Shown here in pieces: positions 12,433 to 24,369 of a stretch of DNA of 64,000 nucleotides (within the stretch, counting starts at the first letter, position 1; every line of letters starts with the position of its first letter). The position numbers were made by a program, and so were the translations under genes. The stretch spans positions 1 through 64,000 of the forward strand of contig CANIVU010000021.1 of the NCBI GenBank assembly GCA_947470805.1, written 5' to 3'. This DNA comes from Acidobacteriota bacterium (GTDB taxonomy: Bacteria; Acidobacteriota; Terriglobia; Bryobacterales; Bryobacteraceae). The notes beneath the pieces are model-generated. The model made no database searches and was not told the DNA's origin. It saw only the letters and a program-made list of their open reading frames with translations.

Positions 12433-12474
12433 CGAATAGTTACTGATATTCCGCTTCCTGCCGAAGAGGTGGCT

Positions 12475-13692
12475 ATGCGAGTGCTGATTCGGCGTTTGTC
12501 CATGTCCGCGAAGTTTGTCCTCATTGGGGCCAGCTTTTCGTTGCCGATCGCGCTGTTGCTCTACCTGTATGTAAGCCAGGTGCAGGCTCGAATCGAGTTT
12601 ACCGACCGCGAACTACGCGGGACCGCGTATTTGCGGCCACTGGTGGAATTGCAGGCCATTCTCCAGGAGGGCCCGTCCCCGCAAGCCGACGCCCGGGCCG
12701 CGGCGGCGTGGAGCGAACTGGAAAGGGTACAGGCGGAACACGGCACGGCATTGGAGTTTACCCCTGTGGGCTTGGGGAAACGCGGCCGGAACGGCCTGGA
12801 AGCCCGGATGATGCGCGAACGGTGGGAAACGCTGCGCCGCGTACCCAGTGAGGCAGAGTCGCGGAAACTGGACACGGATTTTGGAAGAATGATCACCCAT
12901 GCGGGCGATTTGTCGAACCTGATTCTCGACCCGGACCTGGACACGTATTACTTGATGGACGTAATCCTTCTGGCCATGCCACAACTGCAAGCGCGGCTGA
13001 ATCAGATTTCTGAAGAAGCGAAGGCGCCGGAATCCATACAGATGCGATTGGATGCCAGGCTGCTAAAAGAGGTCGAACTCCCGCGCGTTCGCACGAGCTC
13101 AACAACCGCCTGGGTGGAAGATCCCAACTTCGTGGGCAGAAGTCCAACACTCAAACCCAGGTTGGCCGCGGCGTTGACCGCCTTTGAACGCCCCCAGAAC
13201 GAGCTGATCCGCGCCCTGGAAACGACGGATACGAAGCCCCAACAATTGATGGAACTCAGCACAGAGGCGCGCCACGCGGGCGTGGAGTTCTGGGATGTGG
13301 CAACGGCGGAGTTGGACGCCTTGTTGCTCATGCGCGGGGAGGCACTGCGCGGGGAGCGGAACCGCGCCTTGGCCTTATCGTTGCTGAGTCTGGCAGCGGC
13401 AGGGTTCCTTGCTTTTGTTCTCTTGCGGAGCATCACGCAGCCGCTCGAACAGGTGGTACGGGAGTTGAGTCCGGAATCTGTCGCCATGCGAGTCTCAGCC
13501 GAAAGGCTCTCTCTGCGCCGCCTGCGCGACGCACTCGGCGACGATGAATCGGCCCAGTTATCGGCTGAAATGAATCAGCGCTCGATGACGATCCGGCGGG
13601 CTGTCATTGAGCTCGTGGCGCAGATTTCAGGCGGCGCAAGTGAACTCGCGGCCCGGGTGGAAGGCGCACGTTGGAGCACGCCGCTAAAGTAG
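12475..13692 (+). CDS. Chemoreceptor-like membrane protein lacking a signalling domain
   Basis: This 405-residue protein has a transmembrane helix near residues 16-37, a 280-residue helical sensor region, and a second helix near residues 305-325 (ALALSLLSLAAAGFLAFVLL) followed by SITQPLEQVV, the usual start of a HAMP domain. A methyl-accepting protein or histidine kinase would then need 200 or more further residues, but only about 80 follow, without a recognisable signalling hairpin or kinase. The end (ISGGASELAARVEG) resembles the beginning of a chemoreceptor helix. The ATG at 12475 has AGAGG five bases upstream, better than an earlier GTG at 12469. Codon use (TTG, GAG, GCG, CGG) is unlike the C-ending genes before it, so it may be an acquired or decaying receptor. 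Confidence 0.65.
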   Translation: MRVLIRRLSMSAKFVLIGASFSLPIALLLYLYVSQVQARIEFTDRELRGTAYLRPLVELQAILQEGPSPQADARAAAAWSELERVQAEHGTALEFTPVGLGKRGRNGLEARMMRERWETLRRVPSEAESRKLDTDFGRMITHAGDLSNLILDPDLDTYYLMDVILLAMPQLQARLNQISEEAKAPESIQMRLDARLLKEVELPRVRTSSTTAWVEDPNFVGRSPTLKPRLAAALTAFERPQNELIRALETTDTKPQQLMELSTEARHAGVEFWDVATAELDALLLMRGEALRGERNRALALSLLSLAAAGFLAFVLLRSITQPLEQVVRELSPESVAMRVSAERLSLRRLRDALGDDESAQLSAEMNQRSMTIRRAVIELVAQISGGASELAARVEGARWSTPLK

Positions 13693-13740: not shown

Positions 13741-14877
13741 ATGACTGATGCGATTCGGATTCGAATCGTGGCAGACCAGATCGAACAGCTATTCCAATCC
13801 CTTATTAAGCGCGACTATGCGATCTTCGGCCCCACAGTACGGGATGGGGCAATCATCTACGACCGGATCGAGGATACTAGCGATCTGCCACGCGGCGTCA
13901 CTGACCGCCAGGAAGCCGGCAAGTACTCCCTTGCCTCACGCCCGGACCAAGCCCTCTTCGGCTATGCCATCGGCCCCCATAGCTGGAAGAAATACTTTCA
14001 TCCCGCCCGCGTAAAATTGTTCGGCGCAAGCACCGACAACGGTGTCTTTCGCATCCTCCAGGAACCAACCCCGCCCCGCCAACCCACCGCCCTCCTTGGC
14101 GTGCGTGCGTGTGAACTCGCCGCAATCGCCATTCAGGACAAGGTATTGCTGGACGGTCCATACGCCGACGAGATCTATCGGGATCGGCGCAAGGAAGCCT
14201 TCCTTATCGCCATGCAATGCACAGAATCAGCCGACACCTGTTTCTGTTCTTCCATGGGAACCGGGCCCGCTGTTCCCGTCGTCGCTGCCGACATCACACT
14301 CACCGAAATCGCGGACAACGGCAACCACTGGTTCCTCGCCGAAGCCGGTACACCCCGCGGCGGCGAAGTGCTGCTCGAATTGGAACATCAGCCCGCCGGA
14401 GAAGCCGATTGCCTCCAAGTGAGTACAGCGGTGGCAGCCGCCGGCCTACAGCAGAAGCGTCGCCTGGACACCACCGGCCTGCGCGAAGCGTTACAGGACA
14501 GCTTCGACCATCCTCACTGGGACGAAGTGGCCAAAAGATGCCTGGACTGCGCCAACTGCACCATGGTCTGCCCAACCTGCTTCTGCACAGACATCGAAGA
14601 CGTGAGCGACGTATCCGGCGATCACGCCGAGCGCTGGCGCCGTTGGGACTCCTGTTTCACGACCAGCTTTTCCTATATTCACGGCGGCAGCGTCCGCTCT
14701 TCCCCAAAGGCGCGCTATCGCCAGTGGATCACCCATAAATTGTCTTCTTGGGTGGATCAGTTCGGAACCTCAGGCTGTGTCGGCTGCGGCCGCTGCATCA
14801 CCTGGTGCCCGGCTGGCATTGACATCACCGAAGAGGCCCAAGCCATACGTGGAACGGTGAATCATGGAAATACATAG
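13741..14877 (+). CDS. hyhB: [NiFe] hydrogenase group 3b beta subunit (iron-sulfur)
   Basis: This 378-residue cytoplasmic protein matches HydB/HyhB of bidirectional NADP-linked group 3b hydrogenases (sulfhydrogenase beta subunit). The N-terminal 240 residues include the family pattern [13 protein letters not shown] and [10 protein letters not shown]. The C-terminal part carries two 4Fe-4S motifs, [14 protein letters not shown] and [12 protein letters not shown]. It passes electrons between the small subunit and the flavin subunit. It is the first gene of the operon; its end overlaps the next gene by 14 bases. The start may be leaderless. Confidence 0.9.
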
Positions 14878-15328
14878 TTTGGAGCAGATCATCGCGGAGC
14901 ATCCATTTTTCCTCGATCTGGACCCCGCCTACGCCAGTCTTCTGGTCGGCTGCGCATCGAATGTTCGCTTTGAGCCGGGCAGGTACATTTTCCGGGAGGG
15001 AGAGGAGGCGAATCACTTCTACCTGATTCGCCAGGGCCGCGTGGCGGTGGAGATTTCCCCGCCCCACCGCAGACCCATTGTCGTCGACACCTTGATTGAA
15101 GGTGAGATCCTCGGCTGGTCGTGGCTCGTTCCGCCCTACCAGTGGCGATTCCAGGCCCGCGCCATGGAAGGGGCACACGCCATCGCGTTGGACGGCAAGT
15201 GTCTGCGCGCCAAATGTGAAGCGAACAAAGAACTCGGCTATGAACTGCTGAAGCGGTTCTCGCAAGTAGTCGGGGGCCGCCTGGATGCCACGCGGATGCA
15301 GCTGCTGGATCTCTATGCCGCACACTAA
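14864..15328 (+). CDS. Cyclic-nucleotide-binding-domain protein in the hydrogenase operon
   Basis: This 154-residue protein is a single CRP-type cNMP-binding domain: HPFFLDLDPAYASLL, then FEPGRYIFREGEEANHFYLIRQGRVAVEI and a hinge-like C-terminal helix (ELGYELLKRFSQVVGGRL). The DNA-binding helix-turn-helix of CRP/FNR proteins is absent: the chain ends about 15 residues after the dimer helix. The nucleotide pocket is unusual; the expected GEL.(x)RSA segment reads GEILGWSWLVPPYQWRFQARA. It overlaps the beta subunit gene before it and the gamma subunit gene after it, so it is translated with them. It may tune hydrogenase activity by direct binding rather than as a transcription factor; that is inference. 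Confidence 0.85.
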   Translation: MEIHSLEQIIAEHPFFLDLDPAYASLLVGCASNVRFEPGRYIFREGEEANHFYLIRQGRVAVEISPPHRRPIVVDTLIEGEILGWSWLVPPYQWRFQARAMEGAHAIALDGKCLRAKCEANKELGYELLKRFSQVVGGRLDATRMQLLDLYAAH

Positions 15329-16151
15329 TGCAGATTCGATGGTGCCTTCGCCCTGGGTAGTTCGGCAGGTTTCAAAAGAGACGCCGGACACCTTCACGCT
15401 GGTGCTCGATCCGCCCGGCGGCGCGCGCGCAAAATTCACGCCCGGGCAGTTCAGCATGCTCTGGGTAGGCGGCGTCGGGGAACTTCCCATCTCCATCAGC
15501 GGCGATCCCGCCCGGCCCGAATCGCTCACCTATACGGTCCGCTCGGTCGGTCCCGCCACACAGTCGCTCGTGAGCCGGCAGGCAGGCCAGACAGTGGGCG
15601 TGCGCGGACCATACGGAATCGGCTGGCCGATTGAAGCCGCCACCGGCCGGGACATCATCGTGGCCGCTGGCGGCATTGGTCTGGCTCCGTTGCGGCCCGT
15701 CATTTATCATGTACTGGCGAATCGTGCCGACTACGGCCGCCTTACCATTCTCTATGGCGCCCGGAACCCGCGCGACATTCTCTTTCGCAAGGAACTGGCC
15801 GTCTGGGCCAAACAGCCGGACACCCAGTTGCTCTCCACCGTCGATTACGGTGGCGTCGCCTGGCGCGGCCACGTCGGCGTAGTCACAACGCTGTTCAAAA
15901 GGCTCCGCCTGCAACCGGCGAAAACCACAGCCATGATCTGCGGTCCGGAGATCATGATGCGCATCGTGGCGCGGGATCTGATTGCCCGCGGCGTCTCCGG
16001 CGAAGACGTGTATCTCTCCATGGAGCGAAACATGAAATGCGCGGTGGGCCTGTGCGGCCATTGCCAGTGGGGCCCGCACTTTGTCTGCAAAGACGGCCCC
16101 GTCTTCCCCTTCTCCCGGATCGCTTCGCTGTTGGATCGACATGAGCTCTAA
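15315..16151 (+). CDS. hyhG: [NiFe] hydrogenase group 3b gamma subunit, FAD/NAD(P)-binding
   Basis: This 278-residue protein is a ferredoxin-NADP reductase-like oxidoreductase, the diaphorase subunit of group 3b hydrogenases. An FAD-binding barrel holds [13 protein letters not shown], a pyridine nucleotide fold follows with [17 protein letters not shown], and a C-terminal 2Fe-2S motif reads [14 protein letters not shown] plus a downstream Cys in FVCKDGPVF. It transfers electrons to or from NADP(H). The start at 15315 has GGA five bases upstream and gives the normal length; it overlaps the cNMP-domain gene by 14 bases. ATG 15339 is an alternative. Confidence 0.9.
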
Positions 16152-16929
16152 AATGAAAAAGAAGCCGCGTATCGGAGTCTTCAAGTTCGCCTCCTGCGAT
16201 GGATGCCAACTCAGTCTTCTCGACGCCGAGGACCAGTTACTCGCAATCGCCGATGCGATCGAAATCGCCTACTTCCCCGAGGCCAGCCGCACGATGGCAA
16301 AGGGCCCGTACGACATCGCGCTCGTCGAGGGTTCCATCACCACCCACCACGACGCCCAGCGCATTCAGGAGATTCGCCGGCAATCGAAAACCCTCGTCAC
16401 CATCGGCGCCTGCGCCACATCGGGTGGCATCCAGGCACTGCGTAATTGGCGCGATGTCGACGAATTCATCCGCGTCGTTTATGCATCGCCGAAATTCATC
16501 AGCACCCTGAAACTGTCAACTCCCATCGCGGAACACGTCCCGGTGGATTTCGAACTCCGCGGATGCCCGATCAATCAATTTCAGCTGGTGGAATTAATCG
16601 CCGCCACCCTCGCCGGCCGACGGCACAATGTTCCCACCTACAGCGTCTGCATCGAATGCAAAACCAGGGAAACCGTTTGTGTCGCCGTAGCCCGCGGCAT
16701 GGCCTGCCTGGGACCGGTGACGCAGGCCGGCTGCGGCGCCGTTTGTCCCGCCTTCGACCGCGGCTGCTACGGCTGCTATGGCCCCATGGATAGTGCCAAC
16801 ACCGCCTCCATCACCAAACAATTCCGGATACTCGGCCAATCCGACCAGCAGATCGCCCGCGCGTTTCGCGGCTTCAACGCCTGGGACTGGCAGTTCCGAA
16901 AAGCCAGCGAGGAGTGCGAACACAAATGA
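16141..16929 (+). CDS. hyhS: [NiFe] hydrogenase group 3b small subunit
   Basis: This 262-residue subunit holds the iron-sulfur chain next to the NiFe site. The proximal-cluster motif [10 protein letters not shown] is near residue 20, followed by [12 protein letters not shown] and RGCPINQ. The C-terminal cysteines [26 protein letters not shown] and CYGCYGP bind further clusters. There is no Tat signal, so the enzyme is cytoplasmic, as expected for group 3b. The start overlaps the end of the gamma subunit gene by 11 bases; ATG 16153 (MKKKPRIG) is equally possible. The stop overlaps the large subunit start as ATGA. Confidence 0.9.
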
Positions 16930-18221
16930 ACGGCAAAACCCGGACAATTCGCGTCGACACACTCGCCCGCGTCGAGGGCGAAGGCGCTATCCTCATCAAG
17001 CTCCAGGGCGACCGCGTCACCGATGTGAAGCTGCGCATCTATGAACCTCCGCGCTTCTTCGAAGCCTTCCTCCGCGGCCGCCACTACACCGAAATTGCCG
17101 ACATCACCGCGCGCATCTGTGGCATCTGCCCAATCGCCTACCAAATGAGCTCGATCCACGCCATCGAACGGGCGCTCGGTGTCCAGATCGATCCGGCCGT
17201 CCGCATGCTCCGCCGCCTCTTCTATTGCGGCGAGTGGATCGAGAGCCACGCCCTGCACGTCTACATGCTGCATGCACCGGATTTCCTCGGCTACCCGGAT
17301 GCCTTGGAAATGGCGAAGGATCACCGCCAGATCGTGGAGCAGGCACTGCGGTTAAAGAAGATTGGAAACCGCATCGTGCGTGTGATCGGTGGCCGGGAAA
17401 TCCACCCGATCTCGGCCACCGTCGGCGGCTTTTCCAAAGTGTCCACGAAACGCCAGTTGCGCGAACTGGAAGACGATCTGCAATGGGCGCTCGACGCCTC
17501 CATCGCCACCGTCAAATTGGTCGCGGGCTTTGAGTTCCCCGACTTCGAACAGGACTACGAATTCGTCGCGCTTTCCCACCCCGATGAGTATCCGTTCAAT
17601 GAGGGGCGCCTCATCTCCAATCACGGTATGAACATTGACGCCGTCGAGTACGAGGATCACTTTTTCGAACAACACGTGAAGCATTCGAATTCGCTGCACT
17701 CCGTCCATCGCGGGCACGGCTCCTACCTCGTCGGCCCGCTCGCGCGGTTCAACCTGAATTTCGATAAGTTGCCCGCGCCCGCCCGGCAAATCGCCCAGGA
17801 AGTGGGCCTGGTACCACCGGTAAAAAACCCGTTCCGAAGTATCATTGTCCGCGCCGTCGAACTGGTTTTCGCCTGTGCCGAAGCGCTGCGCATCGTTCGG
17901 GAATACGCCCCGCCCGCGCACCCGCAGGTGCCCGTCGAACCGCGCGATGGCGTGGGCCAGGCCATCACCGAAGCGCCGCGGGGCATCCTCTATCACCGCT
18001 ACGCCGTCGACCGGAACGGCCTCATCGTGTCCGCGAAAATCGTCCCGCCAACCTCGCAGAACCAGAAACGAATCGAGGATGATCTACGCGAATTCGCGGC
18101 CCAGGTATCCGCCTGGCCGCTCGAAGAGGCAACATGGAAATGTGAGCAGGCGGTCCGAAATTACGACCCCTGCATCTCCTGCGCCACTCACTTCCTGCGT
18201 GTGACAATCGAGCGAACGTGA
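16926..18221 (+). CDS. hyhL: [NiFe] hydrogenase group 3b large subunit
   Basis: This 431-residue catalytic subunit carries the NiFe(CN)2CO centre. The N-terminal ligand motif is [13 protein letters not shown] (cysteines 65 and 68), in the form typical of group 3b rather than membrane-bound uptake enzymes. The C-terminal ligand motif DPCISCATH is followed by nine residues (FLRVTIERT), which the maturation protease should remove after nickel insertion. The conserved histidine segment [19 protein letters not shown] is present. The ATG at 16926 overlaps the small subunit stop as ATGA and is preferred over a GTG at 16914. The maturation protease gene follows directly. Confidence 0.93.
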
Positions 18222-18223
18222 CC

Positions 18224-18664
18224 ATGCGAACCCGTATTATCGGCTGCGGCACCGAGGACCGCGGTGACGACGCCGCCGGTCTGCGCGTCGCGCAACGCCT
18301 CCGCGCGCTGGGTATCGACGCGCTCGATCACCCGGGCGACGGTCTGTCCCTCATGGAAACATGGCAGGGCGCCGACGACGTCATCCTGATCGACGCCGTC
18401 ATCACCGGTGGCCCCCCCGGCGAGATCAACAGTTGGAACGGCCACCACGCCGACGTCGTCGCGGATCAGCATCGCGCCTCCTCCCACGCCTTCGGTGTGG
18501 CCGAAGCCATCAAACTCGCGCGCATCCTCCATCGCCTTCCCCCACGTCTCACCCTCTACGGAATTGAGGCCGCCCACTTCGCCCTCGGCTCGGCTCCCTC
18601 CCCGGAGGTCGATGCCGCAGCCGAACGGCTCGCCCGTCAACTCGCCGCCGCGGAAGGGGCCTAG
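18224..18664 (+). CDS. Hydrogenase maturation endopeptidase
   Basis: This 146-residue protein belongs to the HycI/HoxW/HyaD family that trims the C-terminal tail of the large subunit after nickel insertion. It opens with [20 protein letters not shown], in which the nickel-sensing Glu/Asp (EDRGDD) replaces the more usual GNxLxxDD pattern. [11 protein letters not shown] and the Ser/His-rich [11 protein letters not shown] follow in the family order. It directly follows the large subunit gene, whose product has a nine-residue tail to remove. A GTG at 18218, overlapping the hyhL stop as GTGA, is an alternative start. Confidence 0.87.
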
Positions 18665-18666
18665 CA

Positions 18667-18927
18667 ATGTGCCTTGCCATTCCAGGCAAATTGATCTGGG
18701 CCGAAGAGCGCGACGGAAACCGCATCGGCAAAGTCCAGTTCGGCGGCATCACCCGCGAGGTCTTCCTGAACTTCGTGCCGGAGGCGGTCCCCGGAGACTA
18801 CGTCATCGTCCACGTCGGATTCGCCATCAGCCTGGTCGATGCGGTGGAGGCCGAACGCACCTTCCAACTCCTCGAAGCCGCCGGCGTATTGGAAGTAGAA
18901 CTCGGCGCCGCGGAGCCCGCGACATGA
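18667..18927 (+). CDS. hypC: Hydrogenase maturation chaperone HypC
   Basis: This 86-residue OB-fold chaperone keeps the invariant N-terminal MCLAIPGK, whose Cys2 carries the Fe(CN)2CO group from HypD to the large subunit. [29 protein letters not shown] is the family core (described here by its halves, FGGITREV and [12 protein letters not shown]). It begins two bases after the protease stop and ends overlapping hypD as ATGA. Confidence 0.96.
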
Positions 18928-20036
18928 AGTACCTCGATGAGTACCGGGAGGAACGTGTCGCGATGGCCCTCGCCGCCCGTATCGCCCGCCAGGTCACCCG
19001 TCGCTGGAACATCATGGAAATCTGCGGCGGGCAGACCCACACGTTGCTGCGCTACGGTCTGCCGGAACTCCTGCCGCCAGAGGTCCACCTCGTCCATGGC
19101 CCCGGCTGCCCGGTCTGCGTCACGCCCTTGGAAATGGTGGATAAAGCCATCGAAATCGCCGCGCGCCCGGGAGTGACCTTCGTCTCCTATGGCGACATGC
19201 TCCGCGTCCCCGGCTCACGGCGCGACCTTCTTGGCGTGAAGGCGGACGGCGGCGACGTCCGTGTTGTATATTCGCCCATGGACGCCGTCAAATTCGCTCG
19301 TGCCCTTCCCTCCCGACAGGTCGTCTTCTTCGGCATCGGCTTTGAAACAACCGCGCCCGCAAACGCCATGGCCGTCTGGGAAGCCCGGCGTCAGGGCCTC
19401 GCGAACTTCTCCCTGCTCGTCTCCCAGGTCATGACGCCGCCCGCCATTCGGATGCTGCTCGAATCGCCCGACAATCAAGTGGATGCCTTCATCGCCCCCG
19501 GCCACGTCTGCACCATCACGGGCTGTCAGGAGTACGAAGCGCTCAACCGCGAATTCGGCGTGCCCATCGTCGTCGGTGGCTTTGAACCCGCCGACCTTCT
19601 GGAAGCCATCGCCATGCTGGTCACGCAACTCGAAGAAGGCCGTGCCGTGCTCGAAAACCAATATGTCCGGTCCGTGCGATACGAGGGCAACCTGCCCGCA
19701 CAACAAATCATGCGGAGCGTGTTCGAAGTATGCGATCGCCGCTGGCGCGGAATCGGCCAGATCCCTCACAGCGGCCTCCGCCTGCGGGAAGAGTTCGCCG
19801 CGCACGATGCCGAAAAGATCTTCGGCGTGTCCGAACCCGGCGCCGAAGAGTCCCCTGAGTGCATCAGCACCGCCGTGCTGCTAGGCCGCAAACGCCCCAC
19901 CGATTGCCCGGAGTTCGCCCGTCGCTGCACGCCGGAAAACCCGCTCGGCGCGCCCATGGTCTCCTCCGAAGGCGCCTGCGCCGCCTACTACCAATACCGC
20001 CGCCGTTCCGCGGAAGGGAGCACCTCCAATGTCTGA
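18924..20036 (+). CDS. hypD: Hydrogenase maturation protein HypD
   Basis: This 370-residue iron-sulfur scaffold assembles the Fe(CN)2CO unit with HypC. Conserved segments are visible: [16 protein letters not shown] with the iron-binding Cys, [16 protein letters not shown] with a redox Cxx[15 protein letters not shown], and [10 protein letters not shown]. The C terminus holds the 4Fe-4S ligands within [19 protein letters not shown] and the preceding region, then [17 protein letters not shown]. Length is normal. The ATG at 18924 overlaps the hypC stop; an upstream extension of the open frame is not coding. The end overlaps hypE by eight bases. Confidence 0.96.
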
Positions 20037-21075
20037 TTCCATTCCGGTCTGCCCGCTTCCCTTCCCTGCCGGCGATCGAGTTTTGCTCGGCCACGGCAGC
20101 GGCGGCAGGCTCTCGGCAAGCCTCGTTCGCGATGTCTTCCTCCACGCGTTCCACAATCCGATCCTCGCCCAATTGGATGACCAGGCCGTCATCGGCGTCA
20201 ACGGCGCCCGCCTCGCGTTCACAACAGATTCCTATGTGGTAAAGCCGCTCTTCTTTCCCGGCGGCGACATCGGATCGCTCGCCGTCCACGGCACCGTGAA
20301 CGACCTCGCAATGGGCGGTGCCCGCCCGCTCTTCCTCAGTGCCGCCTTCATTCTCGAAGAAGGTCTCCCTATGGAGACGCTTTGCCGCGTCGTTGAATCC
20401 CTGCGCCGCGCCGCCGCCGATGCCGGTGTCCAGGTCGTCACCGGCGATACCAAGGTCGTCGAAAAAGGCAGCGGCGACGGACTCTTCATCACTACCTCCG
20501 GCATCGGCCTGGTGCCCGACGGCGTGTGCCTCTCCGCCAGCCAGGCTCGTCCCGGGGACCGCGTCATCCTCAGCGGTACCATCGGTGACCACGGCATCGC
20601 CATCCTCGCCCAGCGCGAAGGACTGCAGTTTGATTCGATCGTCGAGAGCGACTCCGCGCCGCTCCACACGCTGGTGGAAGCCATGCTCGCCGCCGGCTCC
20701 GGCATCCGCTGCATGCGCGACCCCACCCGCGGCGGCGTCTCCAGCGCGTTGAACGAAATCGCCGCCCAATCCGGCGTTGGCGTTGAGATCGATGAGCGCG
20801 CCATCCCGCTACGCGACGATGTGAAGGGTGCCTGTGAACTCCTCGGCCTCGACCCGCTCTATGTCGCCAACGAAGGGAAACTGCTCGCCATCGTCGCGCC
20901 GGAAGACGCCGAAAACGTCCGCGACGCCATGCGCCGCCACCCGCTCGGCGCGCATGCCGCCGTCATTGGCACCATAACCGAAACACATCCCACCGTGGTT
21001 ACCATGCGGACCACCGTCGGTCCCATGCGCGTCGTCGACATGCTTACCGGCGATCAGTTGCCCCGGATTTGTTAG
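20029..21075 (+). CDS. hypE: Hydrogenase maturation protein HypE
   Basis: This 348-residue ATP-dependent dehydratase converts a carbamoyl group on its C-terminal Cys into cyanide for the hydrogenase iron. It has the PurM-like ATP-binding fold: [18 protein letters not shown], then [32 protein letters not shown], and [13 protein letters not shown]. It ends with the required PRIC. HypE works with HypF, which supplies the carbamoyl group and is encoded four genes on. Confidence 0.96.
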
Positions 21076-21083
21076 GAGATCAC

Positions 21084-21431
21084 ATGCACGAACTGGGCAT
21101 CGCCAACTCCGTTCTTACCGCCGTCCGCACCGAGATGCGCCGCCACCCGGGCGCCATTCCGCTCAAGGTCGGCGTCCGCGTCGGTGAACTCGCCGGCGTC
21201 AATCCGGACGCCCTCGAGTTCAGCTTCCTGTCCATCATCTCCGGCACCCCGTGGGAGCGGCTCAAGCTCGACATTCAAACCAAAACGCGCGAACATCGCT
21301 GCTCGTCCTGCCGGGCCACATTCCCCGTCATCGACTATCGGGTGGCCTGCCCCCTGTGCGGCTCCAGCCAAACGGAATGCGTCAGCGGTGACGAACTGGA
21401 AGTCGCCTATTTGGAATTGGAGGAGTCATGA
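21084..21431 (+). CDS. hypA: Nickel metallochaperone HypA
   Basis: This 115-residue protein delivers nickel to the large subunit. The N-terminal MHELGIA provides the nickel-binding His2, and the zinc site is formed by CSSC and CPLC in the C-terminal half. An AGGAGA Shine-Dalgarno lies four bases before the ATG. The stop overlaps hypB as ATGA. Confidence 0.95.
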   Translation: MHELGIANSVLTAVRTEMRRHPGAIPLKVGVRVGELAGVNPDALEFSFLSIISGTPWERLKLDIQTKTREHRCSSCRATFPVIDYRVACPLCGSSQTECVSGDELEVAYLELEES

Positions 21432-22096
21432 CAAGAATCACTCTGGAAACGAAGGTCCTCAGCGAAAACGACCGCATCGCCGCCGATCTCCGCGCGCGCT
21501 TCCGCCAGCACGGCGTGCTTTGCCTGAACTTCATCAGCTCCCCCGGCGCGGGCAAGACACTGCTACTCGAACGCACCCTCGCCGGCTTCGCTCCCACCGA
21601 TCGTGTCGCCGTCCTCACCGGTGACATCCAAACCGACAACGACGCCACCCGCCTCGCCCGCGCCGGCTTCCCCGTGCGCCAAATTACCACCGGCGGCACC
21701 TGCCATCTGGATGCCCGCATGATCGATCGCGCCCTCGCCGATTGGCGGCTCGAAGACCTGGATTTGCTGCTCATCGAAAACGTCGGCAACCTCGTCTGCC
21801 CCGCCAGCTACGACCTCGGCGAAGCCGCCAAAATCGTCGTCCTCAGTGTCACCGAAGGCGAAGACAAACCGCTGAAATATCCCACCACTTTCTTCAAGTC
21901 CAGCCTCCTCGTCCTCAACAAAATCGATCTCCTCCCCTACGTCCCCTTCCAACTGGAGGCCGCGAAAGAAAACGCCCGCCGTGTGCATCCGGACATGGAA
22001 ATGGTGGAGGTGTCCTGCACCTCCGGAGAAGGGATGGACACCTGGCGCGATTGGCTCTCCCGGCGCCGAAAGGCAGCGCAGTCCACCGCCGCATGA
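21428..22096 (+). CDS. hypB: Nickel-insertion GTPase HypB
   Basis: This 222-residue SIMIBI-class GTPase drives nickel insertion with HypA. The P-loop is SSPGAGKTLLL; GDIQTDND, ENVGNLVCP and the guanine motif NKIDLLPY follow. No His-rich nickel-storage stretch and no CxxCGC N-terminal motif are present, so it is the short form of the family. It overlaps hypA and hypF by four bases each. Confidence 0.96.
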   Translation: MTRITLETKVLSENDRIAADLRARFRQHGVLCLNFISSPGAGKTLLLERTLAGFAPTDRVAVLTGDIQTDNDATRLARAGFPVRQITTGGTCHLDARMIDRALADWRLEDLDLLLIENVGNLVCPASYDLGEAAKIVVLSVTEGEDKPLKYPTTFFKSSLLVLNKIDLLPYVPFQLEAAKENARRVHPDMEMVEVSCTSGEGMDTWRDWLSRRRKAAQSTAA

Positions 22097-24369
22097 TCGC
22101 CCGCCGTCACCTCCATGTCGCCGGCATCGTGCAGGGCGTCGGCTTCCGGCCCTTCGTCTATCGCCTCGCCAGCCGCCTCCGCCTCGCCGGCTGGGTTCTC
22201 AATGCAACTGCGGGCGTCGAGATCGAAGTCGAGGGCAGGACAGAGGATCTCGATCAATTCGTCCAGCTCCTGGCCACCGGCCACCCGCCCTTCGCGCACA
22301 TCGAAGAAACAGTCGTCACCGCGTTGGCGCTCGTCGGCGAGACCAGCTTCCAGATCCGCGAAAGCAGCGAACAGAAAACCCATTTCGTCCTCGTCTCGCC
22401 CGATCTGGCAACCTGTGACGATTGCCTCCGCGAACTCAACGACCCCGCCAATCGCCGCTTCGGCTATCCCTTCATCAACTGCACCAACTGCGGCCCGCGC
22501 TACACCATCCTCCGCGACATCCCCTACGACCGCCCGCAAACGTCCATGTCCGTGTTCCCCATGTGCCCCGCCTGCCAGGTCGAATACGACAACCCGGCGG
22601 ACCGCCGCTTCCACGCCCAGCCGAACGCCTGCCCCGATTGCGGGCCGGCGCTAACGTTCGCGGGCGACGCGACCCAACCGGAGGACGCCATCGCGGCCGC
22701 GCAAGCCCTGCTCGCCGCGGGCGGCGTGCTCGCCCTCAAAGCGCTCGGCGGTTTTCAACTGGCTTGCGACGCCGAAAACGAAGGCGCCGTGCGCCAGTTG
22801 CGAAATGCCAAACACCGCGGCGATAAGCCGTTCGCCGTCATGGCGCGGGACCTTGCCGCCGTGGAGCAATACGGCGTGCTTACCGGCGCCGACCGCGCAA
22901 CCCTCACCAACGTCCGCCGCCCCATCGTCCTCATTCCGCGCCGCCCGGAAAGCACCCTCGCCCCCTCTGTTGCGCCCGGCACCGCAACCCTCGGCGTCAT
23001 GCTCCCCTGCACACCGTTGCACCACCTGCTGTTCCGCGACGCGCCCTTCCGCCTGCTCGTCATGTCCAGCGGCAACATCAGCGAGGAGCCGATCGTCACC
23101 AACAACGAGGAGGCCCGCCGCCATCTCAGCGGCGTAGCCACCGGCTTCCTCCTCCACAATCGCGAGATCGAAATGCGCGTCGACGATTCGGTGGTCCGCA
23201 ACGTCGCCGGGCACACCCGCGTGCTCCGCCGCGCCCGCGGCTACGCGCCCTTGCCAATTGACCTCGGTGCGGAATGCGAAGAGGTGCTCGCTTGCGGCGC
23301 CGGACAAAAGAACACGCTCTGCCTCACCAAAGGCCACTACGCCCTGCTCAGCCAGCACATCGGGGATCTCTCAAACTGCGAGACGCTCGAGTTCTTCAAC
23401 GAAACACTCGCCCGCATGCGGCGGCTTTTCCACGCCGATCCCCGCATCGTCGCCCACGACCTGCACCCGGATTATCTCAGCACCCGCTTCGCCCTGTCCC
23501 TCGAAGGAGTGGAGCGAATCGGCGTGCAGCACCACCACGCCCACATCGTCTCCTGCATGGCCGAGCATCGCCTCTCCGGTCCCGTGATCGGCGTCGCCTT
23601 CGACGGTACCGGCTTGGGAACGGATGGCCACGTCTGGGGCGGCGAATTCCTTGTGAGCGACCTGACGGCCTTCGAACGCCGTGCCCATCTTCGCTACATC
23701 CCTCTAGCCGGCGGGGACCAAGCCATCCGCGAGCCGTGGCGCGCCGCCCTCAGCTATCTCGACGACGCCATTCCCCAGCAGGACCTGTCTTTCTGGAACC
23801 CTGCGCCACAAAGCACCGTGGCGTTGATCCGCACCATGCGCCAGCGCCGCATCAACACGGTGCAAACCTCTTCCTGCGGGCGCCTCTTTGATGCCGTCGC
23901 CTCCATCATCGGTCTCCGTCATCACGCCAGCTACGAGGGCCAGGCCGCAATCGAACTGGAAGCTGCCGCCGCTCCGGACATGGAAGAGCGCTACGCGTTT
24001 ACCGTGCAGCCGGGATCCCCCTTGCAACTCGACATGCGACCCGCCATTGCGGCGATCACCGCCGATCTCAGACGCGGCGAATCCACCGCCAACATCTCCG
24101 CCCGTTTCCACAACACCGTCGCCGCCGCCATCGTCGATATCTGCGTCCGGATCCGGGCAGACGCCGGTCTCAATCGCGTCTGCCTCAGCGGGGGAACGTT
24201 TCAGAACGTGTACCTGCTCTCCCGTGTCGACGCGGCCTTGCGGCGCTCCGGATTTGCGGTCTTCCTCCATGCCAGGATCCCTCCAAACGATGGCGGCATC
24301 GCGCTGGGTCAGGCCGTCATTGCCAATCGGATTTGGCAAACACGACAACGGAACGAGCGATACCTGTAG
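22093..24369 (+). CDS. hypF: Carbamoyltransferase HypF
   Basis: This 758-residue enzyme makes carbamoyl-AMP from carbamoyl phosphate and passes the carbamoyl group to HypE. Domains in order: acylphosphatase (residues 1-90; GIVQGVGFRPFVYRLA), two zinc-finger repeats (about 105-185; CDDCLREL, CTNCGPRYT, CPACQVEY, CPDCGP), a YrdC-like domain (about 190-385; LKALGGFQLACDA, KPFAVMARD) and a Kae1-like domain (about 390-750; HDLHPDYLSTRFA, HHHAHIVSCMAE, AFDGTGLGTDG). Length is standard. The ATG at 22093 overlaps the hypB stop; it completes the operon. Confidence 0.96.
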   Translation: MIARRHLHVAGIVQGVGFRPFVYRLASRLRLAGWVLNATAGVEIEVEGRTEDLDQFVQLLATGHPPFAHIEETVVTALALVGETSFQIRESSEQKTHFVLVSPDLATCDDCLRELNDPANRRFGYPFINCTNCGPRYTILRDIPYDRPQTSMSVFPMCPACQVEYDNPADRRFHAQPNACPDCGPALTFAGDATQPEDAIAAAQALLAAGGVLALKALGGFQLACDAENEGAVRQLRNAKHRGDKPFAVMARDLAAVEQYGVLTGADRATLTNVRRPIVLIPRRPESTLAPSVAPGTATLGVMLPCTPLHHLLFRDAPFRLLVMSSGNISEEPIVTNNEEARRHLSGVATGFLLHNREIEMRVDDSVVRNVAGHTRVLRRARGYAPLPIDLGAECEEVLACGAGQKNTLCLTKGHYALLSQHIGDLSNCETLEFFNETLARMRRLFHADPRIVAHDLHPDYLSTRFALSLEGVERIGVQHHHAHIVSCMAEHRLSGPVIGVAFDGTGLGTDGHVWGGEFLVSDLTAFERRAHLRYIPLAGGDQAIREPWRAALSYLDDAIPQQDLSFWNPAPQSTVALIRTMRQRRINTVQTSSCGRLFDAVASIIGLRHHASYEGQAAIELEAAAAPDMEERYAFTVQPGSPLQLDMRPAIAAITADLRRGESTANISARFHNTVAAAIVDICVRIRADAGLNRVCLSGGTFQNVYLLSRVDAALRRSGFAVFLHARIPPNDGGIALGQAVIANRIWQTRQRNERYL

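What the first reader, a model, noticed from the sequence alone, without database searches (positions are those of the whole stretch)
14864..15328. Cyclic-nucleotide-binding domain with no DNA-binding domain inside a hydrogenase operon
A single CRP-type sensor domain without HTH lies between the beta and gamma subunit genes, with both junctions overlapping. This implies stoichiometric production with the enzyme and suggests a ligand-controlled subunit. The nucleotide pocket is unusual (GEILGWSWLVPPYQWRFQARA region), so the ligand may not be cAMP.
Basis: partly seen in the sequence, partly recalled or inferred. Interest (0 to 1): 0.65.

Follow-up and report, generated by a model that had tools for sequence, protein, structure and literature searches.

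The report
Sensor-like fifth subunit in hydrogenase operon
A small sensor-like protein without a DNA-binding part is encoded inside the operon of an NAD(P)-linked hydrogen enzyme; it is a lasting feature of one branch of that enzyme family in many bacteria, its binding pocket has lost the two residues that hold cyclic AMP, and it probably tunes the enzyme much as HoxI does in another hydrogenase, though neither partner nor ligand has been shown.

Summary
Observation confirmed. Window 14864-15328 encodes a 154-aa protein with one cyclic-nucleotide-binding (CNB) fold and no HTH, between hyhB and hyhG of a group 3b-type [NiFe]-hydrogenase operon.

It is not a one-off. In 297 Acidobacteriota genomes, 16 of 16 with this HyhL type carry it. 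On a HyhL tree (117 rows) all 55 rows with CNB between B and G lie in one branch of 68, which also holds 6 without it and 7 incomplete: one gain and two losses suffice. The 46 other complete rows lack it there.

The pocket is non-canonical: the Glu and Arg that hold cyclic nucleotides align with Trp85 (58 of 69) and Trp94 (64 of 70). Fold: CRP-like beta-roll plus long C-helix (AF2 pLDDT 91.6).

Reading: a peripheral regulatory subunit, analogous to HoxI of the Cupriavidus soluble hydrogenase (NADPH activation), but no closer to HoxI than to ordinary CNB proteins. A mirror-tree signal points weakly to HyhG as partner. Ligand, complex and effect are inferred.

The gene's presence in 3b clusters is in print (two papers, one calling it HoxI). 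Its clade-wide distribution, losses and pocket motif I did not find in my searches of an open-licence library.

The parts
14864..15328 (+). CNB-only protein (154 aa), proposed regulatory fifth subunit of the Hyh hydrogenase
   Evidence: PF00027 54.2 bits, no HTH; AF2 pLDDT 91.6; of 60 loci with HyhB, HyhG, HyhL and any CNB match, 59 have it between B and G, L096 not
15101..15163 (+). altered phosphate-binding cassette, residues 80-100 GEILGWSWLVPPYQWRFQARA; Trp85 and Trp94 stand where canonical CNBs have Glu and Arg
   Evidence: conservation in 70 operon copies; gapless alignment there with canonical CNBs L001 and L002 of the same genome
15227..15319 (+). long C-terminal helix, residues 122-152, like the CRP C-helix (dimerisation inferred)
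   Evidence: AF2 model; aligned to residue 154 with CRP-type regulators at Z about 17
13741..14877 (+). HyhB (beta, Fe-S subunit)
   Evidence: Fer4_22 116.5 bits; NCBIfam sulfhyd_HydB 145 bits, below cut-off 750
15318..16151 (+). HyhG (gamma, FAD/NAD(P)-binding subunit)
   Evidence: PF00175 and PF10418; NCBIfam cytochrome-c3 hydrogenase gamma 208 bits, below cut-off 395
16141..16929 (+). HyhS (delta, small hydrogenase subunit)
   Evidence: PF01058 89 bits; NCBIfam ShyD 176 bits, below cut-off 460
16914..18221 (+). HyhL (alpha, NiFe large subunit)
   Evidence: PF00374 97 bits; NCBIfam ShyA 287 bits, below cut-off 700
18218..18664 (+). hydrogenase maturation protease (HycI family)
   Evidence: PF01750 38 bits

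Best explanation
The gene encodes a peripheral, non-DNA-binding regulatory subunit of one clade of group 3b-type [NiFe]-hydrogenases. It is a CRP-type beta-roll with a long C-helix that probably homodimerises. It most likely docks on the NAD(P)H-side module (HyhG, perhaps HyhB/G) and senses a small molecule other than cAMP or cGMP, a pyridine nucleotide being the first candidate, and so switches or tunes the hydrogenase, as the HoxI dimer does for the Cupriavidus soluble hydrogenase. Shown: position, co-inheritance, absence of HTH, fold model, loss of the canonical cNMP ligands, a conserved replacement motif, absence in two nested lineages. Inferred: binding to the enzyme, dimer, ligand, effect on activity.
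For: Acidobacteriota (297 genomes): 16 of 16 genomes with HyhL of this type (472 bits or more; next 340) have the CNB (124 bits or more; next 56), 14 on one contig and 2 on different contigs; 16 of 17 genomes with the CNB have that HyhL. All 55 CNB rows fall in one 68-row HyhL branch (SH-aLRT 99), at least 3 changes. CNB distances follow HyhL (r 0.66, 0 of 2000 permutations reach it). Partial mirror-tree correlation given the other three subunits: HyhG 0.38 (0 of 1000 permutations reach it), HyhL 0.19 (19), HyhB 0.11 (194), HyhS -0.02 (542), on 44 of 54 loci. Cassette Glu and Arg replaced by Trp85 (58 of 69) and Trp94 (64 of 70); G84, S86, W87 and P91 in 65-68 of 69. Precedent for the mechanism: the six-subunit Cupriavidus SH with HoxI, but not the four-subunit form, is activated by NADPH, and HoxI is described as bound to the diaphorase (PMC3702609, passages).
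Against: No complex was tested. Relatives with the same or a close motif lie outside hydrogenase operons (near Usp genes in L033 and L076, ribonucleotide reductase in L032, a histidine kinase in L019, Mo-oxidoreductases in L183 and L185, and, read by eye, AdhE-like in L200), and one genome (G054) has a 55%-identical CNB but no such HyhL; so the family is not bound to Hyh and some copies may act alone. No footprint of a lost docking site was found in HyhB, HyhG, HyhS or HyhL where the CNB is missing. The mirror-tree signal could also come from exchange of the CNB-HyhG block. HoxI keeps Glu and has another pocket, so NADPH does not carry over by homology. Trp85 is replaced in 11 of 69 operon copies.
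Confidence: 0.55

Rival explanations
1. A co-transcribed but separate cytosolic signalling protein: it senses the redox or energy state and acts on other partners; it rides in the operon because it is needed under the same conditions.
For: Motif-bearing relatives occur without hydrogenase beside Usp, histidine kinase, ribonucleotide reductase and pyridoxamine-oxidase genes and, by eye, AdhE-like and SDR genes. Hyh cores show no clear change where the CNB is missing.
Against: One position, between B and G, in 59 of 60 loci with B, G, L and a CNB match, across several phyla; distances follow HyhG and HyhL.
Confidence: 0.22
2. A ligand-free structural or assembly factor: a degenerate CNB used as a protein-protein module that stabilises or matures the diaphorase.
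For: Both canonical ligand residues are gone in most copies; DSSP shows no helix in the cassette of the AF2 model, residues 84-96; CNB domains occur as add-ons elsewhere (weak similarity to encapsulin 2B, 31 bits).
Against: The replacement motif is itself conserved, in part also outside the operon, which suggests a binding site; relatives of the enzyme persist without it: two nested absences, and in M. smegmatis Hyd3 the beta and gamma genes are consecutive (PMC2799521, passage).
Confidence: 0.15
3. A true HoxI orthologue recruited to group 3b, binding NADPH as HoxI does.
For: Same fold class, same kind of enzyme, named HoxI in one paper.
Against: Cupriavidus HoxI scores 48.5 bits to the family model, hardly above canonical CNBs of the window's own genome (44.3 and 41.7); pHG1 is held but is not among the 25 plasmid records matched by tblastn at E 1e-3; the HoxI cassette GELGFIDQTPHSLSV keeps Glu; hoxI lies after hoxH and the protease gene, not between B and G.
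Confidence: 0.05
4. A canonical cAMP/cGMP receptor that makes the hydrogenase respond to cyclic nucleotides.
For: PF00027 domain; the genome has one PF00211 cyclase-like gene (171 bits; other cyclase families not searched).
Against: Glu and Arg of the cassette are replaced by Trp in most copies, while two other CNB proteins of this genome, L001 and L002, keep them.
Confidence: 0.03

Closest known systems
HoxI of the soluble NAD-reducing hydrogenase (HoxFUYHI2) of Cupriavidus necator H16
   Same: CNB-type single-domain protein encoded with a cytosolic NAD(P)-linked [NiFe]-hydrogenase; no HTH
   Different: Group 3d (recalled), not 3b; gene after the protease, not between B and G; keeps the Glu of the cassette and has His in place of Arg; no closer in sequence than generic CNBs; HoxI is an experimentally established subunit, this one is untested
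Gmet_1532 of Geobacter metallireducens (PDB 3mdp)
   Same: Nearest solved structure (best full-length match to the A1 profile, 77 bits; Z 21.1, rmsd 1.6 A over 132 residues); CNB-only; cassette GVSSLIKPYHYTSSA of a similar S-x-L-x-x-P-Y kind
   Different: 26% identical; function unknown; no Trp at the Glu and Arg places; genomic context not examined here
CRP/FNR regulators (GlxR, Clr, FNR)
   Same: beta-roll plus C-helix (Z about 16-17)
   Different: No HTH; cassette residues of the cAMP binders not kept
Group 3b hydrogenase Hyd3 of Mycobacterium smegmatis
   Same: beta, gamma, delta, alpha subunits and protease gene
   Different: Beta and gamma genes are consecutive, MSMEG_3931 and MSMEG_3930 (PMC2799521, passage), so no annotated CNB gene between them: a natural contrast

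Membership tests
Group 3b [NiFe]-hydrogenase operon | B-G-S-L gene set with NiFe large subunit, small subunit, FAD/NAD and Fe-S subunits | tested here: met
   Pfam and NCBIfam hits, NCBIfam scores below the equivalog cut-offs; formal HydDB class not available
HoxI | CNB/CAP-like single domain without HTH | tested here: met
HoxI | closer in sequence to HoxI than to other CNB proteins | tested here: not met
   48.5 bits for HoxI against 44.3 and 41.7 for canonical CNBs; tblastn at E 1e-3 does not list pHG1
HoxI | encoded in a hoxFUYH operon after hoxH and its protease gene | tested here: not met
   between hyhB and hyhG; Cupriavidus order
HoxI | homodimer bound to the diaphorase; NADPH activation | not testable with these tools
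   needs biochemistry
CRP/FNR transcription factor | C-terminal HTH | tested here: not met
   protein ends with the C-helix
canonical cAMP/cGMP-binding domain | cassette Glu and Arg | tested here: not met
   Trp85 and Trp94 in the window; Trp85 in 58 of 69 and Trp94 in 64 of 70 operon copies
PF00027 cNMP_binding superfamily | score over the curated cut-off | tested here: met
   54.2 against 27.5 bits
Encapsulin family 2B shell protein | NCBIfam cut-off of 400 bits | tested here: not met
   30.9 bits, matched over residues 26-134 only

The most novel reading that the evidence does not exclude
A widespread family of CNB-only proteins with a tryptophan-lined, non-cAMP pocket (G-W-S-x-L-x-P-P-Y-x-W-x-F-D-A) works as add-on sensor subunits of soluble redox complexes: a fifth subunit of one group 3b hydrogenase clade, and cousins beside Mvh-type hydrogenase plus Hdr-type genes (L178, L179), HyhBG-like plus Hdr-type genes (L180, L181) and molybdopterin oxidoreductases (L183, L185), each sensing a metabolite, perhaps NAD(P)H or another nucleotide, to gate electron flow.
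Probability: 0.3. Interest if true: 0.68.

Novelty: new variant of a known kind. Interest (0 to 1): 0.45.

Why it matters
Group 3b hydrogenases are among the most widespread cytosolic hydrogenases (recalled), yet in my searches I found no allosteric subunit described for them. A clade-wide CNB subunit with a changed pocket would give a direct handle on how cells decide between H2 uptake and H2 evolution, and its absence in nested relatives gives ready-made controls. It would also correct the label HoxI, which implies NADPH sensing that the pocket does not support by homology.

Tried and rejected
HoxI orthology was the leading idea; it failed on score, pocket and position. I first took L064 and L065 (CNB after a HoxH-like gene and protease) for HoxI-type loci; the wider stretches L178 and L179 hold HdrB-type CCG genes, and L179 also FlpD, so I now read them as Mvh-Hdr type. 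I looked for docking-site footprints, that is conserved core residues changed where the CNB is missing: no HyhB or HyhG position and one conservative change each in HyhS and HyhL is shared by both nested absences. A search for HyhB-CNB or CNB-HyhG fusions found none; the only ORF hit by two models, in L145, carries HyhB and HyhG matches in a locus with a split HyhG. Conserved Cys30, Cys113 and Cys118 (56 of 69, 53 of 69, 48 of 70) suggested a metal or redox site, but in-operon copies L029 and L030 lack all three and two of them, so I dropped it. Promoter and terminator scan: 0 promoter-like and 1 terminator-like match, below the shuffled means, uninformative. The second structure job was not used and no complex was predicted: the tool folds one chain. 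Burgdorf et al. 2005 is not held; its content is taken from citing papers. Other pocket precedents were seen only as fold-search rows.

Rows dropped and sampling. Searches left out HyhL matches under 330 residues or 400 bits and exact duplicates; five loci with B-CNB-G and a short HyhL (L009, L010, L014, L022, L077) are therefore not in the tree. The window's own HyhL was missing because locus L004 is cut; it was added. The AU test used the 116-row set without it. One search kept 44 of 54 loci after removing near-copies. Twenty of the 54 CNB rows came from searches by the CNB itself or from genomes reached that way and cannot count towards frequency. In Acidobacteriota I fetched 40 stretches from 36 genomes, holding 37 HyhL matches: 15 of the 16 strong ones (the 16th is the window) and 22 of 29 between 214 and 340 bits. 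In Actinomycetota I fetched loci from 40 of 83 matching genomes, in Pseudomonadota from 15 of 27, strongest first with some weaker ones; G304 and G302 are covered by L028 and L023.

Full report
What is there. Window 14864-15328 encodes 154 aa with one PF00027 domain and no other Pfam family. It lies between hyhB (13741-14877) and hyhG (15318-16151), followed by hyhS, hyhL and a HycI-type protease. The junction with hyhB overlaps by 14 nt; that with hyhG by 11 nt if ATG 15318 is used. Codon-position differences and dN/dS show purifying selection.

How general it is. A pattern scan of one-per-species genomes gave 38 relatives; 25 of the 38 have HyhB and HyhG matches on either side (tblastn; 24 by profile), in records labelled Acidobacteria, Bacteroidetes, Ignavibacteriales, Nitrospina, Zixiibacteriota, Deltaproteobacteria, Azospirillum, Acidimicrobiales, Omnitrophota and others. 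Annotated plasmids of Paraburkholderia, Pandoraea and Rhodococcus show the same order; a Streptomyces plasmid copy stands without hydrogenase genes. In an even sample of 297 Acidobacteriota genomes, 16 of 16 with the window-type HyhL (472 bits or more; next 340) have the CNB (124 bits or more; next 56), 14 on the same contig; in the two others HyhB-CNB-HyhG and HyhL lie on different contigs, in G063 not at a contig end, so the operon may be split there. One genome of 17 has the CNB without that HyhL (G054). Of the more distant BGSL hydrogenases (about 33-42% HyhL identity) of that phylum I fetched 22 of 29; the 21 complete loci have no CNB between B and G, and one, L096, has a distant CNB relative downstream of HyhL. 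Over all loci in hand with B, G, L and a CNB match, 59 of 60 have it between B and G.

The tree. On the HyhL tree with the window (117 rows: 55 CNB, 52 without, 10 incomplete) all CNB rows sit in one branch of 68 rows (SH-aLRT 99) with 6 rows without and 7 incomplete; three changes suffice, for example one gain and two losses. The AU test rejects the CNB rows as a group free of CNB-less rows (p 2e-6, 116 rows, quick tree), so losses, or replacements of the enzyme, are nested. The gap between HyhB and HyhG matches is 488-891 nt with the CNB and 28-167 nt without, but for L145 (788 nt by the script, where HyhG is split). Within the branch, by searches not steered by the CNB: Acidobacteriota 13 with, 0 without, 2 incomplete; Actinomycetota 19, 6, 1; Pseudomonadota 2, 0, 0 (window not counted). 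A search of the six CNB-less genomes found nothing over 63 bits in five; the sixth, G691, has an orphan 60%-identical copy beside genes that read by eye as AdhE-like and SDR. M. smegmatis Hyd3 has consecutive beta and gamma genes (PMC2799521, passages). So the enzyme can probably work without the CNB.

The pocket. Across 70 non-identical copies beside HyhB and/or HyhG (they include L062 and L063 of the Hdr type and L031 beside HyhG only) the cassette consensus is G-[DE]-[IV]-L-G-W-S-W-L-x-P-P-Y-x-W-x-F-D-A; the window departs from it at 97 (Gln for Asp). The Glu and Arg that hold ribose and phosphate in canonical domains (role recalled) align without gaps with Trp85 (58 of 69) and Trp94 (64 of 70); residue 95 is variable, so the Arg has not merely moved. 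Two other CNB proteins of the same genome keep Glu and Arg (L001, L002). Relatives outside hydrogenase operons share most of the motif, with exceptions (Leu85 in L033, L035, L037; Lys94 in L036), so it belongs to the family and is not special to Hyh.

Fold. AF2 gives pLDDT 91.6, pTM 0.85: beta-roll and C-helix 122-152, no HTH. Nearest structure 3mdp (Z 21.1, 1.6 A, 132 residues), then CRP-type proteins at Z about 17. A C-helix of that kind forms the dimer in CRP (recalled); the dimer here is inferred.

Partner. CNB and HyhL distances correlate (r 0.66, 0 of 2000 permutations, 54 loci). Given the other three subunits, CNB correlates with HyhG (0.38, 0 of 1000), weakly with HyhL (0.19, 19 of 1000), and not clearly with HyhB (0.11, 194) or HyhS (-0.02, 542); jackknife range for HyhG 0.35-0.40 (44 loci). 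This is weak evidence for HyhG as partner and can also come from joint exchange of neighbouring genes. No footprint in the core subunits and no fusion was found.

Wider family. More distant relatives with related cassettes lie beside Mvh-type NiFe hydrogenase with HdrB-type genes (L178, L179; FlpD seen only in L179), HyhB/HyhG-like genes with FlpD and an HdrA-like protein (L180, with L181 of the same layout by size; there the CNB follows G), and two-component genes plus molybdopterin oxidoreductases (L183, L185). This suggests a redox-enzyme companion family, but other relatives sit beside Usp, pyridoxamine-oxidase or kinase genes.

Literature. Passages of PMC3702609 describe HoxI as a dimer bound to the diaphorase, with NADPH activation only in the six-subunit form and high activity also in the four-subunit form; passages of PMC3189943 say that HoxI separates readily; passages of PMC12809855 call it regulatory. 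PMC12319191 (passage) names a CNB protein in a group 3b cluster HoxI; PMC13332983 (passage) lists one in the Rhodococcus equi 3b cluster. Searches showed me no functional study of it in a 3b enzyme; the library holds only open-licence papers and I opened few of the listed ones, so this is not proof of absence.

Verdict. Real, conserved and worth a test, but the kind (CNB subunit on a soluble hydrogenase) is known from HoxI, and the gene's presence in 3b clusters is in print. New here, as far as my searches show: clade-wide distribution with nested absences, fixed position, the Trp-for-Glu/Arg pocket, and the failure of HoxI orthology.

Noticed in passing
window 12469-13692: 407-aa protein, a membrane protein by eye, 48 nt upstream of hyhB with no Pfam family; possibly in the same transcript.
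   Followed up: no
window 18218-24369: What reads by eye like a full maturation set (protease, HypC, HypD, HypE, HypA, HypB, HypF) follows hyhL; only the protease was checked by Pfam.
   Followed up: partly
L200:7615-8064: Orphan CNB 60% identical to the window's in an actinobacterial genome (G691) whose own Hyh operon lacks it; neighbours read by eye as AdhE-like and SDR genes.
   Followed up: partly
L180:4480-4953 and L181:5002-5475: CNB relatives after HyhB/HyhG-like genes, with FlpD and HdrA-like genes (checked in L180 only) and no HyhL or HoxH match in the stretch.
   Followed up: partly
L183:5098-5611 and L185:4829-5317: CNB-only proteins between a two-component system and a molybdopterin oxidoreductase (cytochrome c7 between in L183).
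   Followed up: partly
L032:5974-6444 and L174:3943-4431: Aquisalimonas seems to carry two CNB copies on one contig (same genome, equal contig length 33610), one in the Hyh operon and one beside a ribonucleotide reductase gene.
   Followed up: partly
L101, L102, L103, L107, L108 and L171 HyhL places: Several distant HyhL matches hold one in-frame TAG, TGA or TAA inside the aligned stretch; recoding or selenocysteine not examined.
   Followed up: no
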